The notes under the pieces were generated by a model. That model was not told the origin of the DNA and did not search any database. It saw only the letters and a list, made by a program, of their open reading frames with translations. Of a DNA stretch of 21,359 nt, positions 1,562-21,359 are shown piece by piece. This stretch comes from a virus. Position 1 is the first letter of the stretch, and every line of letters begins with the position of its first letter. Made by a program: the position numbers and the translations under genes. The stretch is taken from positions 1 to 21,359 of the IMG/VR virus record IMGVR_UViG_3300032770_000100, one strand, 5' to 3'.

Positions 1562-1828
1562 ATGTGCAAGATCGTGGCTGCAGTAGCGCTCCCCGGTGAC
1601 GGGAAGACCGTCATCGTGGAGTACGGCATGCCGGGATACTATGACGTCCAGACGAGACTCACTCCCGAGGAGTTCAACGCGGCCAAGGGCATCACGCCCG
1701 AGATCGCCGAGGCCTTCCTCGTCGGGTCGATGTTCGGCTGGGACGTGCCCGGCGCGTGGCTGGCGCGCAAGTACGTGCAGGACACCAGCTACGAGCAACG
1801 CCTGAAACGCAAGCATGCGATGGGGTAG
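1562..1828 (+). CDS. Small hypothetical phage protein (88 aa)
   Basis: Unrecognised. It starts 2 nt after the preceding stop, with a GAGGAG site inside the end of the upstream gene, so the two are probably co-translated. The product has a short N-terminal beta-like region (KIVAAVALPGDGKTVIVEYG) and a helical C-terminal half (PEEFNAAKG, EIAEAFLVG) ending in a basic tail. The GDGK turn is not part of a full P-loop (no following S/T), so I do not call it an ATPase. Seven bases after the stop lies the first of two covarying 24-nt hairpins, followed by the long structured gap. Confidence 0.6.
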   Translation: MCKIVAAVALPGDGKTVIVEYGMPGYYDVQTRLTPEEFNAAKGITPEIAEAFLVGSMFGWDVPGAWLARKYVQDTSYEQRLKRKHAMG

Positions 1829-1834
1829 CACTCA

Positions 1835-1858
1835 GGATGCCTTCTCACGAGGGCATCC
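1835..1858 (+). repeat. Intergenic 24-nt hairpin, copy 1
   Basis: A 10-bp stem with a tetraloop: arms 1835-1844 and 1849-1858, loop TCAC. One pair is T-G (a wobble only in plus-strand RNA). It starts 6 nt after the stop codon of the 1562 gene. A second element of identical length and geometry follows another stop codon at 3394-3417. The copies differ at five positions, four of which form two complementary pair changes. No U-tract follows, so a conventional terminator is not supported; a 3'-end stabiliser, processing site or protein-binding hairpin is possible. Confidence 0.7.
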
Positions 1859-1861
1859 GAG

Positions 1862-2214
1862 GGGCTAACGCCCAGGAGTGGCGCAGTCAGGCAGCCTTCA
1901 GTCCTAGGCATTGGATCGTTCGCGGGGGTGCAACCCGTGGGTGCCTAGGATTGAGGGCTGCCGAGCGGCGCCGTCTCATCGGACGGCTAGTGCAGGACGG
2001 GGCACGACGACAAGCGGGGTGATGCCCGCGCCCGGTAACTCAGCTAAGGTTGCTGCGCAATGGCCAGTAGCGACACCGCCACGCAGGCGGCTGGCAAGTG
2101 ATGCCTCTTAGCGGAGGCCGTAGCCTTCTGCCCAAGCCGAGAGTGTTGCCCTAATAAGGTCGCTCGGCCCATGGCAGCGGGGTACGCAAGACCGTGGCGG
2201 TGCGGCTCACCGCC
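1862..2214 (+). ncRNA. Candidate structured RNA in a 410-nt gene-free gap
   Basis: Between the stop at 1828 and the ATG at 2239 I find no credible gene, but stems follow one another almost without a break: 1862-1865/1870-1873; a 21-bp stem 1890-1910/1942-1962 with only two G-U pairs, whose apical loop carries an inner 6-bp stem 1921-1926/1934-1939; 1970-1975/1982-1987; 2014-2018/2025-2029; a bulged pair 2063-2067/2091-2095 plus 2076-2080/2086-2090; 2103-2107/2114-2118; 2136-2141/2163-2168; and 2196-2202/2208-2214. The wobble pairs are valid only in plus-strand RNA. I cannot assign a known RNA family. It may be an independent RNA or the leader of the DUF932 gene. Confidence 0.55.
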
Positions 2215-2238: not shown

Positions 2239-3246
2239 ATGTCTGCTGGAATCGATATGAGCAACGGCCGCGCCAACATGGCGCATGCCAAGGGTACGCC
2301 GAAGCCGTGGTGGGGCATCGGATTCGAGGTGGACGCCAACGCCAGCATCGAAGAGTGGCAACGGGCGGCCGGCCTCAACTTCGAGGTGCTGAAGGGCGAG
2401 CTGCTCTTCAGAGACTCCGCCGACGTCATCCACGAGGCGAGCAAGGCGCTGAATCGCAGCGTGCTGTATCGCAGCGACACGCTCGCGCCGCTGTCGGTGA
2501 TGTCGAAGAACCGCTACCACATCCATCAGCCGGCTGACATCCTCGCCTTCATCAGCGACGTCAGCAGGGCCACGGGGTGGCCGGTCGAGACCGCGGGCAG
2601 CTTGTACGGCGGCCGCAAAATCTGGGCGCTGCTCAAGGTGCCGGTGTCGTTCACCCTTCCGGGCGGCGACGTCGTGGAAGGCTACCTCTTGGCCTCCACA
2701 TCGTTCGACGGCAGCAGCGGAAGCGACTTCCGCTTCATCTGCACGCGCGTGGTCTGCGCGAATACCTTGCACATGGGCCTGTCCGAGAAGGTCAAGCACG
2801 CCACGGTGGTCTACCACGACACCGTCATCGACGTGCAGCGGGTCAAGGCCGACCTGGGCATGGCGGCAGAGCCGGTGTGGACCAGCTTCATCGAGACAGC
2901 GAAGCAGCTGGCCTCGATCAAGCTGACGCGCAGCCAGGCCGTCAGCATCCTGCGCAAGGTGTACGACGATACGCCCATCGTGTCGTCTGCCGTGCGTGTG
3001 CCGGATGAGCAATTCATCCTCGACAACCCCACGCCGCGCCGCATCCTGGGCCTGTACGAAGGCGCGGGGCTGGGTAGCAACCTCGCCAGTGCGCTCAACA
3101 CGGGCTGGGGGTTGGTCAACGCGGTGACGCAAGACACCGACCACTTCGGTAGCAATCGCAACTCGCGTCTCAACTCGGCGTGGTTCGGGCCGGGCGCGGC
3201 GCGCAAGCAGGCCGTCGTGGAAGCCGTGCTGGACGTCGCAGCATGA
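2239..3246 (+). CDS. DUF932-family protein (335 aa)
   Basis: The protein matches my memory of the DUF932 family (also described as phage/plasmid-like protein TIGR03299), found in many phages and plasmids and without an established biochemical role. Supporting segments are the early PWWGIGFEVD (about residues 23-32), a central YLLASTSFDGSSG and FICTRVVCANTLHMGL (about 150-180), and later helical regions. The length fits the family's usual 300-400 residues. The ATG at 2239 follows AAAGG; an in-frame ATG at residue 7 is a less likely start. It directly follows the structured gap, so that RNA could act as its leader. The stop overlaps the start of a tiny basic gene (ATGA). No signal peptide or membrane span. 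Confidence 0.8.
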   Translation: MSAGIDMSNGRANMAHAKGTPKPWWGIGFEVDANASIEEWQRAAGLNFEVLKGELLFRDSADVIHEASKALNRSVLYRSDTLAPLSVMSKNRYHIHQPADILAFISDVSRATGWPVETAGSLYGGRKIWALLKVPVSFTLPGGDVVEGYLLASTSFDGSSGSDFRFICTRVVCANTLHMGLSEKVKHATVVYHDTVIDVQRVKADLGMAAEPVWTSFIETAKQLASIKLTRSQAVSILRKVYDDTPIVSSAVRVPDEQFILDNPTPRRILGLYEGAGLGSNLASALNTGWGLVNAVTQDTDHFGSNRNSRLNSAWFGPGAARKQAVVEAVLDVAA

Positions 3247-3453: not shown

Positions 3454-3774
3454 ATGGCAGAACTTATTCCCCTGCAGCAGATTTACCTGTTGGCCATCTC
3501 CGAGGCGTGCAAGGCGCTCCACCTGGACTGCCTACTGCAAGACCTCGGCGACGGGAAGACGGGTCGTCTGTGGCTCGTGCATCCGGGCCGCACCGTGGCG
3601 TACGCGCAGCTCGCATTCGCGTTCGATCACGACGACGTCACGCTCGGCATCATCACGCGAGACGAGCGTGAGCTGGTGCGCGTAGTCAAGTATGTCGAGG
3701 GCATCGAAGACTTCATCGAGGCCATGACGCGCTTCTTCCACGCCGGCCGTCTCGCGGCACCGAAACAGAGGTAA
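3454..3774 (+). CDS. Hypothetical phage protein (106 aa)
   Basis: Not recognised. The ATG at 3454 follows AAGGAG with good spacing after a 64-nt leader that carries hairpin copy 2. The protein starts with a helix (PLQQIYLLAISEACKALHL), then shows a compact alternating pattern of strands (TGRLWLVHPGRTVAYAQLAF, DDVTLGIITRD) and a final helix (GIEDFIEAMTRFFHAGR). That suggests a small alpha/beta domain. No catalytic signature, signal peptide or membrane segment is evident. It starts a new run of tightly packed small genes reaching 5048. Confidence 0.6.
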   Translation: MAELIPLQQIYLLAISEACKALHLDCLLQDLGDGKTGRLWLVHPGRTVAYAQLAFAFDHDDVTLGIITRDERELVRVVKYVEGIEDFIEAMTRFFHAGRLAAPKQR

Positions 3775-12745: not shown

Positions 12746-13635
12746 TAGAACGGCATCCTTTCGCTTTGTTCAAAGACTGGCGGATCGAAGTATCGCCCAG
12801 TGATTCGATCATACCACAGCGTCCCCATGCCGATGCGTCCCAGGTGCTTGAAGCGCATCTTCTGGACGTGGATGTCGACCTCCTGCGTGTGCTCGTCCGC
12901 GGTGTCTCGATGCACGCAGAGCACGACGTCCGGCACGTTGTACCAGTGGGCCGATCCCGAGATGTCGTACGGCGTCGGCACCGGCCGCTGACCCGTCTTC
13001 GGGTCGCGCAGCATCTTCTGCGGGTGCGCTACCAGGATTGTCGTGAAGTCCGCCTCGCGGCAGCGCTTCTGGATATCCTTCAGCGCCTTGAGCACGTACT
13101 TCGATTCTCTGGCGTCGTCCCCGCGGTGCTCCAGGCTGTTCCACGGGTCGAGGATCACGCAGAACTTCCCCTCGCGCCGGAAGCGCATGGCGGCATCCAG
13201 CAGGCTGCTGTAGTCCTTCCACGCCGGGGCGAGCCAGAAGAAGCGGTCGTCCACCCACAGCATGGCCTCGCCCAGCTCCTCGCGCGTCATGCGCTCGCTC
13301 GGGCCGGCGCCGAATGGCTTGCGTACGTGCTTCTCGCACAGCTTGGCCATATGAATCTGAGTGGGGTAATTCTCCGGCGAATATAGCCCGAAGTTCCATC
13401 CACCGGTCTCGGCGAGATTCACCGCCATGGCGTCCACGAACTCGGACTTCCCCATGTTCGGGATGCCAGTCACGACCACGAGCTGCCCCGTGGCCAACGT
13501 TACCAGCCGGTCGAGGCTGTGCCAGCCGGTCGAGCTTCCAGGCGGCAGGCCTGCGTCGTACAGCTCCAGCGTGCGGCCGGCCAGCGGGTCCAGCAGCTCG
13601 ATGGGCAGCGGCTCTGGTACGAAGTCTGCGGTCAT
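12745..13635 (-). CDS. DnaB-like replicative helicase / RecA-fold ATPase (296 aa)
   Basis: This is a RecA-fold ATPase of the DnaB helicase type, which unwinds DNA at the phage fork as a hexameric ring. Visible: Walker A GIPNMGKS (57-64) after QLVVVT, a catalytic-Glu-like YSPEN (85-89), Walker B FCVILDPWNS (158-167), sensor TTILVAHPQKM (198-208), and the C-terminal VPDVVLCVHRD (234-243) with VQKMRFKHLGRIG (257-269), where Lys259 and Arg261 are positioned like an arginine finger. The N-terminal DnaB domain is missing, so it is a short helicase-core form, as in several phages. ATG 13635 overlaps the upstream stop (ATGA). The upstream DUF1376 protein may load it. Confidence 0.85.
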   Translation of the reverse strand: MTADFVPEPLPIELLDPLAGRTLELYDAGLPPGSSTGWHSLDRLVTLATGQLVVVTGIPNMGKSEFVDAMAVNLAETGGWNFGLYSPENYPTQIHMAKLCEKHVRKPFGAGPSERMTREELGEAMLWVDDRFFWLAPAWKDYSSLLDAAMRFRREGKFCVILDPWNSLEHRGDDARESKYVLKALKDIQKRCREADFTTILVAHPQKMLRDPKTGQRPVPTPYDISGSAHWYNVPDVVLCVHRDTADEHTQEVDIHVQKMRFKHLGRIGMGTLWYDRITGRYFDPPVFEQSERMPF

Positions 13636-14714: not shown

Positions 14715-15422
14715 ATGGCGTATGATCCTAAACTGTCGCTTAATCAGCGACTTCTGAACGTGATGCTGGAGGTCGAGTACGTCAAGAAGGACGTCACGAT
14801 CCCCGGCTCGGGCAAGGGGGTGGCCAGGGACGCGGTCGTTGCCGCCATCCGCCGACGCCTGCTGGCGAACGGCGTCATCGCGCGCACGTCCGAGGTGCCA
14901 GGCACCGGGCGCTTCATCGAAACCAACCAGAAGTCGGCCAGCGGCACGCCGAAGATCACCTATGCGGCCACGTATCGCACCTCGTTCGTCAACGTGGACG
15001 ACGGCTCGACGGTCGACGTCGAACACCTGGGGCAGGGCGACGACTTCGGCGACAAGGCGCCGGGCAAGGCCGGTACGTACGCGGAGAAGCTGAACTTCCT
15101 GCGCGGCCTCCTGCTGGAGACCGGCATCGCAGATGAGGGGCGCAACCCTGGCGAGGGCGACACCGACACCGAATCAGCGCCGGCCTGCCTCAGCGCGGCG
15201 GAGCGCGCGGTGTTCGAGGGCAAGATCAAGGCCGAGACCACCGAGAAGGCCATCCTGCAGGACCTGAAGGATGCCCGCCAGCGGCTCGCCGTGGTAGCCG
15301 GGGACATCGATGTCAGCACCCATCCCGATATGGTGGCGCTGATCGAGGTTGCATCCAAGCGCAAGGGTGAGCTGGCCGAAGCCAAGAAAGCCGAGGCCAA
15401 GAAAGCCGAGGCCGAATCGTGA
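14715..15422 (+). CDS. erf: ERF-family single-strand annealing protein (235 aa)
   Basis: The sequence matches the ERF superfamily: LNQRLLNVMLEVEYVKKD at the start, GKGVARDAVVAAIRRRLLAN (about 34-52), YRTSFVNVDDGSTVDVEH (87-104) and the diagnostic GDKAPGKAGTYAEKLNFLRG (112-131) followed by LLLETGIADEG. ERF proteins bind single-stranded DNA and anneal complementary strands during phage recombination and end joining. The C-terminal quarter is variable, charged and ends in lysine/alanine/glutamate repeats. It heads the rightward operon and travels with the usual partners, a YqaJ-type exonuclease (16661) and an SSB (17663). Start ATG 14715 has GGAGAG upstream. The stop overlaps the ligase start (GTGA). 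Confidence 0.9.
   Translation: MAYDPKLSLNQRLLNVMLEVEYVKKDVTIPGSGKGVARDAVVAAIRRRLLANGVIARTSEVPGTGRFIETNQKSASGTPKITYAATYRTSFVNVDDGSTVDVEHLGQGDDFGDKAPGKAGTYAEKLNFLRGLLLETGIADEGRNPGEGDTDTESAPACLSAAERAVFEGKIKAETTEKAILQDLKDARQRLAVVAGDIDVSTHPDMVALIEVASKRKGELAEAKKAEAKKAEAES
15381..15410 (+). repeat. 15-nt in-frame tandem repeat at the end of the ERF gene
   Basis: Two perfect adjacent copies of a 15-nt unit (15381-15395 and 15396-15410), followed by the start of a third. They encode two copies of Ala-Lys-Lys-Ala-Glu at the C-terminus. Length can change by whole repeats without shifting the frame; the tail is probably a flexible charged extension. Confidence 0.85.
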
Positions 15423-16099
15423 TCGACTTCGAGGGGTTCCCCAAGATTCCGCGGCTGTCTCGGCCGTGCTGCATCACCGAGAAGATCGACGGGACCAACG
15501 CGCAGGTCTACATCAGGCAAGCAGAGGTTCACGATCTGCCGGATGGCACGCGCATTCACCCGGAGCCATTTGAATTCGGGGTCGACATCCAGGTGACCGG
15601 CAAGGATGGCCTGGAATACTACCTCCGCGCCGGCAGCAAGAGCCGCTGGCTCCGCCTCGATGACGACAACTTCCGCTTCGCCAACTGGGTGTATCAGCAT
15701 GCCCCCGAGCTGGTGGAACTGGGGCCTGGCCGACACTTCGGCGAGTGGTGGGGCCACGGCATCCAGCGCGGGTACGGCCAGGAGCGCAAGCGCTTCTCGC
15801 TGTTCAACACCAAGCGCTGGCTGGATCGGGGCAACATCACCATCGACCCGGTCACCGGTGACCAGCAGCCCAACACCGCCACCGTACCCCCGCCGTGCTG
15901 CGACGTGGTGCCGGTTATCGTCGAGGGCATGTTCAGCACGGGCCTGGTGAACATGGCCCTGGAGACACTGGCGCGCCTCGGTAGCATCGCCGCGCCCGGG
16001 TTCAACAACCCGGAGGGCATCATCGTCTACCACGCCGCGCTCGGCGGCTACTTCAAGAAGTCGCTCCACAAGGACGAGGAGTGGAAGGGAAAAAAGTGA
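15419..16099 (+). CDS. RNA-ligase-family nucleotidyltransferase (226 aa)
   Basis: The motifs of the RNA ligase (Rnl2-like)/DNA ligase superfamily are in order: motif I EKIDGTN with the adenylated Lys22, motif III FGEWWGHG (Glu109), motif IIIa FSLFN (126-130), motif IV NPEGIIVY (197-204) and motif V YFKKSL (211-216). Such enzymes use ATP to seal nicked or broken RNA, sometimes DNA. With no C-terminal OB domain and 226 aa it is a minimal catalytic core. It starts at GTG 15419, sharing GTGA with the ERF stop. A place between recombination genes suggests repair of nucleic acid ends, but an RNA role such as tRNA repair cannot be excluded. Confidence 0.85.
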   Translation: MIDFEGFPKIPRLSRPCCITEKIDGTNAQVYIRQAEVHDLPDGTRIHPEPFEFGVDIQVTGKDGLEYYLRAGSKSRWLRLDDDNFRFANWVYQHAPELVELGPGRHFGEWWGHGIQRGYGQERKRFSLFNTKRWLDRGNITIDPVTGDQQPNTATVPPPCCDVVPVIVEGMFSTGLVNMALETLARLGSIAAPGFNNPEGIIVYHAALGGYFKKSLHKDEEWKGKK

Positions 16100-19750: not shown

Positions 19751-19890
19751 CGCGCGACGACCTGATCGATTACTCGAAGGACGAGCTGATCGGCGTGGTG
19801 CTGATGCTGGACAGGAAGATCGCGCGCATGGTCAAGTCGAGCATGGAGCACCGCATCGGCCACGTCTGCGAGCGGATCAAGCGGCTCTAG
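19747..19890 (+). CDS. Small protein with apparent CTG start (47 aa)
   Basis: The last part of the plus operon reads TRDDLIDYSKDELIGVVLML, then DRKIARMVKSSMEHRI and GHVCERIKRL: a well-formed helical protein unlike the sequence upstream in the same frame. The upstream stop is CTGA, and CTG 19747 in that overlap would start this protein just like the ATGA/GTGA pairs of the neighbours; GCGAGG lies about 8 nt before it. In-frame alternatives are GTG 19795 and ATG 19804 (shorter), or TTG 19492 (far upstream). Its TAG shares CTAG with the opposing gene's stop. Confidence 0.45.
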   Translation: MTRDDLIDYSKDELIGVVLMLDRKIARMVKSSMEHRIGHVCERIKRL

Positions 19891-21359
19891 GGCTGGGCTA
19901 CCTCGTGTAGCGAGCGCGGCGGGTAGCGCTTGGATGGTATCTTGACTGGGGACAGGCCCTCCCTGAGCACGAGGTGAACCTCGGGCAGGCGCAGTCCGGC
20001 GGCGAACATCCGCGGCACCATCTGGCTCGGCTGCCCTCCGTTTTGCAGCTCCCCTCGGAACTTGGCGATCAGGGCGTCCTTCTGCCGGCTGAGCGCGGCG
20101 GCCTCGGTCTGCTTATCGTTCTTGGTGATGTAGCCAGGCGACGGCGTGATGCCAAACATGGACGGGGATGCGATATAGCCGAGCGGGTTGACTTCCTCGC
20201 CCAGGGTCTTTTGCTGCTGCTGGTAGTTGCGAATACCGAATGGCGTGAGCTGCGCGATGAGGTAGTTGGCCTCGTCCTGCACCTGCTGCACGATGGGGTC
20301 TCCCGGGCTGCGGATGGCTGCGCCGAAGAAGTCCTGGTTGTTCAGCATCTGCGCGATCATCCCGAGCATAGGGTGCAGCTTGTTCTGCAGGGTCTGCGTC
20401 GGGTTGGCGCCGTACTTCAGGAAGCCGCTGATGTCGTGGCCGTACTCGAAGAGGTCCTTCATGTACGAAGGCAGCGACACGCGATCCTCCGTCCCGTCTG
20501 GCCGCGTGCGGCCGGTGCGCGGGAAGATGTAGTCCTTCAGGTCCTGCGGACCCTGCCCGGTGTACATGTAGCCGATCATCGATCCCAGGATGGCGGTAAC
20601 GAACGGCAGCGCGAACACGTAGGCGGAGCGGCTGGACAGCTCCTTGTCCTTGAGCACGTTCTTGAAGTCGAGCACGCCGCCGCCCAGCTCTCGGAACGTA
20701 CCGAGGTTCCAGCCCACCGAGCGCACCGAGATCATCAGGGCATCCTTCAGCGCGCGGTTCCAGAAGACGTTGTCGTAGGCGAGCTGACCCAGGCGGTTGT
20801 CCACCGAGTCCCAGAACTTGCCCATGGCCTCGCGCTTCTCCTCCAGCGTGGCGTTCGGGTTGCGCTCGATCCAGTCCTTGGCCATGTCGAAGAAGATACC
20901 CATCTTCTGGCGCGGCACCAGCTGCTCGAAGACCGGGGCGTTGATGCGGTCGAGCATGGCGGGCAGGAAGCCGCGCGCGATTCCGGCCTTGTCTCCGCGG
21001 GAGATGGCCTGCTTGAAGCGGTTGAGCGCGTCGTTCTTGTAGAAGTCGTCCAGACCGACACGCCCGCCGCCCTGGAGCATGGCCTCGACGATGGGGGCGA
21101 GGTTCGGGTCGTCCAGCTTGCCCAGCGCCTGGCGCAGGAGGCGGTCGCCCTTGTAGAAGTTGATGAACGGCTGGATCGGGTTGATGGACTGGGCCAGGTT
21201 GCCGAAGCCCTTGAACATCTGGCCGCGGCTGATCTGCTGGATGCCGAGTGCGGCCTTCGACACCATGGAGTCCACCGTGGTGAAGCCGGCGTGGAAGAGC
21301 GACAGCCCGAGCTGCGCGCTGTTCAGCATCATGCCTGACTTGTGCAGGAAGTCGTACAC
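19887..21359 (-). CDS. C-terminal part of a very large polyvalent/virion-associated protein (partial)
   Basis: The frame is open from the right edge to TAG at 19887-19889, giving 490 aa that lack a real N-terminus. The start visible at the edge (NSAQLGLSLFHAGFTTVDSM, then SKAALGIQQISRG) resembles the conserved helix of large polyvalent-protein-associated domain 38 (LPD38) found near the C-terminus of giant phage proteins that are packaged and injected or attached to the virion. After it come helical segments, a hydrophobic stretch (VFALPFVTAILGSMIGYMYTG, about 248-268) and a Gln/Pro-rich end. Leftward direction and size agree with a late gene. The LPD38 assignment is from memory and moderate; the full length is unknown. 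Confidence 0.6.
   Translation of the reverse strand: MYDFLHKSGMMLNSAQLGLSLFHAGFTTVDSMVSKAALGIQQISRGQMFKGFGNLAQSINPIQPFINFYKGDRLLRQALGKLDDPNLAPIVEAMLQGGGRVGLDDFYKNDALNRFKQAISRGDKAGIARGFLPAMLDRINAPVFEQLVPRQKMGIFFDMAKDWIERNPNATLEEKREAMGKFWDSVDNRLGQLAYDNVFWNRALKDALMISVRSVGWNLGTFRELGGGVLDFKNVLKDKELSSRSAYVFALPFVTAILGSMIGYMYTGQGPQDLKDYIFPRTGRTRPDGTEDRVSLPSYMKDLFEYGHDISGFLKYGANPTQTLQNKLHPMLGMIAQMLNNQDFFGAAIRSPGDPIVQQVQDEANYLIAQLTPFGIRNYQQQQKTLGEEVNPLGYIASPSMFGITPSPGYITKNDKQTEAAALSRQKDALIAKFRGELQNGGQPSQMVPRMFAAGLRLPEVHLVLREGLSPVKIPSKRYPPRSLHEVAQP

What the first reader, a model, noticed from the sequence alone, without database searches (positions are those of the whole stretch)
1835..2214. Dense run of stems in a gene-free gap: candidate new structured RNA
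The 410-nt gap before the DUF932 gene holds at least nine consecutive stems. The most notable is a 21-bp stem (1890-1910/1942-1962) interrupted only by G-U pairs, capped by an inner 6-bp stem. The wobbles are legal only in plus-strand RNA, so selection on RNA is the simplest reading. The size is in the range of phage structured RNAs such as ROOL and GOLLD, but I see no match to them.
Basis: partly seen in the sequence, partly recalled or inferred. Interest (0 to 1): 0.85.

Follow-up and report, generated by a model that had tools for sequence, protein, structure and literature searches.

The report
Orphan phage hairpin RNA between genes
A virus of bacteria carries, in a gene-free stretch between two genes, a very long and clearly non-random hairpin that would form in its RNA; no relative was found, so it is most likely a local RNA-processing or expression-control hairpin, and a new class of large structured RNA is not shown.

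Summary
The gap (1829-2238, 410 nt, no coding signal) does hold structure far beyond chance, but almost all of the signal lies in its first third. Hairpins at 1835-1858 (10 bp, UCAC loop), 1862-1873 (4 bp, UAAC loop) and 1876-1977 (22-bp uninterrupted core, about 40 pairs in all) give z = -9.6 on the plus strand; 1801-2000 plus is the best of 424 windows over both strands. The remaining 260 nt (1978-2238) fold no better than shuffles (z = -0.4), so 'nine consecutive stems' is mostly what any GC-rich sequence gives. A 13-bp long-range closure (1821-1833/2141-2153) is only weakly supported. The wobble argument is weak, but the plus/minus energy difference favours plus-strand RNA (2 of 200 shuffles). 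No homologue was found in Rfam, phages, plasmids, IMG/VR, upstream of 160 other DUF932 genes, or in the Burkholderiales and Xanthomonadales genomes sampled. Covariation is therefore untestable and ROOL/GOLLD kinship unsupported. Best reading: an intercistronic plus-strand RNA hairpin in the p88-DUF932 operon, probably a processing or expression-partitioning element (RNase III-type); an orphan trans-acting ncRNA is the main rival. In passing, a covarying multi-copy leader RNA was found upstream of DUF932 in Cupriavidus.

The parts
1562..1828 (+). upstream 88-aa ORF (p88); its last codons overlap the 5' strand of the proposed closing stem
   Evidence: PHROG 10280, function unknown, E 4.5e-9; coding-like codon usage
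1835..1858 (+). hairpin A: 10 bp (one G-U), loop UCAC (UMAC-type tetraloop)
   Evidence: z -5.75, 0 of 200 shuffles as good; pairing probability 1.00
1862..1873 (+). hairpin C: 4 bp, loop UAAC (UMAC-type tetraloop)
   Evidence: pairing probability 0.98
1876..1977 (+). hairpin B: long hairpin with 9- and 2-bp lower stems, a 22-bp uninterrupted core (1890-1911/1941-1962) and a 7-bp cap (1920-1926/1934-1940)
   Evidence: MFE -71.5 kcal/mol, z -8.9, 0 of 200 shuffles; core helix longer than in any of 200 shuffles
1821..1833 (+). 5' strand of a possible long-range closing stem P1 (pairs with 2141-2153), tentative
   Evidence: probability 0.97 in the model; with hairpins kept and the rest shuffled the real sequence folds better than 297 of 300; 13-bp helices occur by chance in 37 of 200 shuffles of the gap
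2141..2153 (+). 3' strand of the possible closing stem P1, tentative
1984..2139 (+). predicted distal branched arm; not distinguishable from shuffled sequence
   Evidence: 1978-2140 z -0.75; sub-part 2039-2116 z -2.2
2122..2136 (+). 12/15 direct copy of part of hairpin B's 5' arm (1893-1907); could compete for its 3' arm (inference)
   Evidence: repeat D1
2239..3246 (+). DUF932 gene (PF06067, E 2.5e-37; PHROG 1221), same strand, with its own AAAGGA ribosome-binding site at about 2228

Best explanation
It is a plus-strand structured element of about 145 nt (1834-1977: two small UMAC-loop hairpins and one long hairpin) in the untranslated gap between p88 and DUF932, inside a run of co-directional phage genes. 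I think it works in cis at the RNA level. The long hairpin (22 uninterrupted bp, about 40 pairs in all) would be a substrate for host RNase III or a barrier to exonucleases and ribosomes, separating or processing the p88 and DUF932 parts of one transcript so that the two genes are expressed at different levels. Shown: the hairpins, their non-randomness, the plus-strand bias, the non-coding gap and gene order. Inferred: transcription through the gap, double-strand-specific cleavage, and the effect on expression.
For: Hairpins A and B are far beyond chance (z -5.75 and -8.9; longest helix exceeds all 200 shuffles). Folding favours plus over minus (z -9.6 against -7.1 for 1829-1977; energy difference reached in 2 of 200 shuffles). 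RNA parameters give a more extreme z than DNA ones (-6.3 against -5.3). All neighbours (933-1559, 1562-1828, 2239-3246, 3454-3774) are on the plus strand, DUF932 has its own ribosome-binding site, and neither a sigma-70-like promoter nor an intrinsic terminator was found between 1500 and 2400, so the gap is probably transcribed as part of a longer message. The signal is local, as expected of a processing hairpin rather than of a large folded RNA.
Against: No homologue, so no covariation and no sign that the structure is kept by selection. Most DUF932 genes in other phages have short, ordinary upstream gaps. The inverted repeat is also strong as DNA, and the minus strand still has z -7.1 for 1829-1977, so a DNA-level role is not excluded. 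RNase III cleavage is assumed, not tested, and a 410-nt gap is longer than a processing hairpin needs.
Confidence: 0.4

Rival explanations
1. A trans-acting phage non-coding RNA of about 150-330 nt, closed by P1 (1821-1833/2141-2153), processed from the operon or made from its own promoter: a member of an undescribed structured-RNA family.
For: Gap without coding signal; 1821-2153 folds at z -7.6 on plus and -3.3 on minus; with the hairpins kept and the rest shuffled the real sequence folds better than 297 of 300; two UMAC tetraloops; no Rfam match.
Against: 1978-2238 on its own is no better than shuffled; P1 length occurs by chance in 37 of 200 shuffles; no homologue by BLAST, nhmmer or single-sequence covariance models; no promoter-like site found.
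Confidence: 0.25
2. A DNA-level element: the inverted repeat (arms 1880-1910/1942-1972) is a protein-binding, recombination, packaging or single-strand-annealing site, and the RNA fold is a by-product.
For: The inverted repeat is strong as DNA (z -5.3 with DNA parameters; 81% complementary arms over 31 nt); six mismatches split 3 G-U, 1 C-A, 2 A-G, which hardly separates RNA from DNA; the phage carries YqaJ exonuclease, SSB and a single-strand-annealing-like protein.
Against: The plus/minus energy difference is reached in only 2 of 200 shuffles; hairpin A (one G-U) is a second, separate non-random hairpin with an RNA-type tetraloop.
Confidence: 0.2
3. A 5' leader that regulates DUF932 (attenuator or riboswitch-like), in which the 2122-2136 copy of hairpin B's 5' arm competes for its 3' arm.
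For: Position directly upstream of DUF932; direct repeat 1893-1907/2122-2136, 12 of 15 identical; an unrelated but conserved structured leader precedes DUF932 in Cupriavidus, so some DUF932 genes do carry leader RNAs.
Against: The Cupriavidus model does not match this gap (best plus-strand score 4.4 bits); no terminator-like site; the short repeat may be chance.
Confidence: 0.15

Closest known systems
RNase III processing hairpins in intercistronic regions of phage early operons (such as T7 R1-R5); from general knowledge, not from a search hit
   Same: Long double-stranded hairpin in an untranslated gap between co-directional phage genes
   Different: No experimental cleavage; the surrounding gap (410 nt) and this hairpin (about 40 pairs) are larger; no sequence relation tested
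ROOL and GOLLD large ornate phage RNAs (Rfam; PMC12286853)
   Same: Non-coding, structured, phage-borne
   Different: No Rfam match at the gathering score or at E up to 10; supported structure about 150 nt rather than several hundred; no tRNA island; no pseudoknot or covariation evidence
Cupriavidus DUF932 leader element found here (model R1)
   Same: Structured element in a long non-coding gap directly upstream of a DUF932 gene
   Different: Different sequence and hairpin arrangement; the model does not match the window gap; conserved and covarying, unlike this orphan
Frpo/ssi single-stranded DNA promoters of conjugative plasmids (PMC11541004)
   Same: Long hairpin upstream of a gene common on mobile elements
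   Different: Those carry -35/-10 hexamers in the duplex; none is found here, and this is a phage contig; folding favours RNA over DNA

Membership tests
Any Rfam 15 family (ROOL, GOLLD, introns, ribozymes, riboswitches and others) | Covariance-model match at the gathering score | tested here: not met
   0 matches in the whole window; with E up to 10 only spurious microRNA and ribosomal-leader matches far below their gathering scores
ROOL / GOLLD | Length of several hundred nt with extensive supported structure | tested here: not met
   Supported structure is 1834-1977 only; 1978-2238 z -0.4
ROOL / GOLLD | Typical location near tRNA genes | tested here: not met
   No tRNA or tmRNA in the 21-kb window
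Conserved structured RNA family in general | Compensatory changes across homologues | not testable with these tools
Cupriavidus DUF932 leader element (model R1) | Match to model R1 | tested here: not met
   Best plus-strand score in the gap 4.4 bits, E 4.4, filters off, against 117-171 bits for members
Intrinsic terminator | GC-rich hairpin followed by a run of U | tested here: not met
   None found between 1500 and 2400
Frpo/ssi ssDNA promoter | -35 and -10 hexamers within the hairpin | tested here: not met
   No sigma-70-like pair between 1500 and 2400
RNase III processing hairpin | About two turns (20 or more bp) of dsRNA in a transcript | tested here: inconclusive
   22 uninterrupted bp predicted; transcription not testable here
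RNase III processing hairpin | Cleavage by RNase III in vivo or in vitro | not testable with these tools
   Needs an experiment
Protein-coding gene | Reading frame with coding-like codon usage or homology | tested here: not met
   All six frames negative; the three ORFs overlapping the gap have no Pfam match

The most novel reading that the evidence does not exclude
The segment 1821-2153 is one folded phage RNA of about 330 nt, closed by a long-range stem, with UMAC-capped hairpins and a 40-pair arm, and is the first seen member of an undescribed family of phage structured RNAs acting in trans.
Probability: 0.15. Interest if true: 0.65.

Novelty: new member of a known kind. Interest (0 to 1): 0.3.

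Why it matters
A 410-nt non-coding gap in a gene-dense phage with a helix longer than any shuffle can give is worth keeping as a candidate. If homologues with covariation turn up it would be a new phage RNA family. As it stands it shows that a dense-looking run of stems in GC-rich DNA can owe nearly all its signal to one or two hairpins.

Tried and rejected
Homologue searches that found nothing: blastn of the gap against phages and plasmids; DUF932 as a single protein in IMG/VR and in GTDB genomes; four DNA patterns from loops and hairpins in IMG/VR, all chance matches by context or complementarity; blastn in 14 phage records with a related DnaB-like protein, 6 genomes with DUF932, and 698 Burkholderiales and Xanthomonadales genomes, where the few 22-40-nt matches lie inside long open frames; covariance models of 1834-1977 (R2) and 1984-2139 (R3), built from this one sequence, over the DUF932 loci and the DnaB-related loci (R3 on part of the latter) and in 250-300 genomes per search. 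The tool warns that the empty genome searches have no positive control. The nearest phage by replication genes (L098, DnaB-like 55%) has no DUF932 and no match to the gap. Structured gaps upstream of other DUF932 genes (L025, L035, L051 and others) are unrelated. A first 300-nt energy scan timed out and was redone with 200-nt windows. MITE or insertion element: rejected, since there is a single copy, no flanking duplication at the P1 ends, and no copy elsewhere (and the searches above).

Full report
What was checked. The window is a complete 21,359-base viral record of a dsDNA phage judged by its genes: a GH19-like endolysin, DnaB-like helicase, YqaJ exonuclease, SSB, RNA ligase, and a primosomal DUF1376 protein. 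The 410-nt gap 1829-2238 lies between an 88-aa ORF and a DUF932 gene, both on the plus strand. No frame in it has coding-like codon usage, and its overlapping ORFs have no Pfam match.

Is the structure real? The gap with 24 nt of the upstream gene (1805-2214) folds at -219.9 kcal/mol, z -6.3 against dinucleotide shuffles; the minus strand has z -3.1 and single-stranded DNA z -5.3. In a scan of 424 windows of 200 nt over both strands, 1801-2000 plus is first with z -9.5; its own minus strand is second (-5.6) and the next best is -5.0. The named stem is confirmed as 22 contiguous pairs (1890-1911/1941-1962) with three G-U pairs and a 7-bp cap. The longest helix in the gap exceeds the longest in each of 200 shuffles, whose maximum is 16.

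Where the signal is. Split up, 1829-1977 has z -9.6, while 1978-2140 has -0.75, 1978-2238 has -0.4 and 2141-2238 has +0.8. The late stems are therefore expected of any sequence of this composition. The closing stem 1821-1833/2141-2153 has probability 0.97 in the model, but 13-bp helices arise in 37 of 200 shuffles. If the hairpins are kept and only the P1 strand and 1978-2153 are shuffled, the real sequence still folds better than 297 of 300 (z -2.7), so a larger architecture has weak but not zero support.

RNA or DNA? The plus-minus energy difference is reached in 2 of 200 shuffles, and the loops of hairpins A and C are UCAC and UAAC, both of the UMAC tetraloop type known from structured RNAs (general knowledge). 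Together this favours RNA on the plus strand.

Relatives. Rfam gives nothing. There is no match in annotated phages or plasmids. DUF932 relatives at 32-41% identity were collected from IMG/VR (80 loci) and from bacterial genomes (80 loci). In the phage set the upstream gap is usually under 150 nt and not unusually structured. In the genome set there are two groups with long structured leaders, Cupriavidus and Xanthomonadales, both without a convincing BLAST match to the window gap (the best alignments are weak, antisense, and 55-58% identical) and, for Cupriavidus, without a covariance-model match (4.4 bits). The closest phage by its replication genes, L098, has no DUF932 in its 25.9-kb record. 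Models of the window's own hairpins (R2) and distal arm (R3) found only the window in the held loci searched and nothing in the genomes searched. The tools state that records very near the window may be left out, so absence of relatives here is not proof of uniqueness.

Mechanism. The gene order, the ribosome-binding site of DUF932, and the absence of promoter-like and terminator-like sites suggest readthrough transcription from the genes upstream. A long, nearly perfect hairpin in such a position is most simply an RNA-processing or stability element that uncouples the two genes; RNase III is the natural candidate because of the 22-bp uninterrupted duplex. This is inference. A trans-acting RNA, a DNA site, and a regulatory leader remain open; for the last, a 12/15 copy of the 5' arm of hairpin B at 2122-2136 could act as a competitor strand.

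Verdict. It stays a modest orphan candidate.

Noticed in passing
L363:3651-3797, L364, L366, L367, L368, L370, L371, L373, L381, L382: Conserved, covarying structured leader of about 145 nt in a non-coding gap (about 460 nt in most) upstream of DUF932 in Cupriavidus genomes and plasmids, with core CGCGUC-NNN-GACGCAUCGACC. Further copies recur at about 3.4-kb spacing in the same loci (up to four in L381), near the known sbcD RNA in L371 and L373. It is not itself matched by Rfam. This may be the more interesting RNA.
   Followed up: partly
L434, L441, L414, L420 and ten other Xanthomonadales-type DUF932 loci: Shared upstream region; the four printed loci show a short membrane-peptide-like ORF and a GC-rich terminator-like hairpin followed by TTATGCCGTC or TTATGCCATC (in L434 only GTGCCGTC) just before DUF932.
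   Followed up: no
window 13401-13600 (within the DnaB-like gene); L098:9401-9600 and L099:6601-6800 (within the DUF1376 gene): Strong folding energy inside or next to the replication genes (z -5.0, -7.0, -8.1; only 12-20 shuffles each), possibly a replication origin.
   Followed up: no
window 19890-21359 minus: 490-aa C-terminal part of a large protein with no Pfam, PHROG, phage or IMG/VR relative found.
   Followed up: no
window 15419-16099 plus: Phage RNA ligase (PF09414) next to a single-strand-annealing-like protein (14715-15422), in a phage without tRNA genes in this contig.
   Followed up: no
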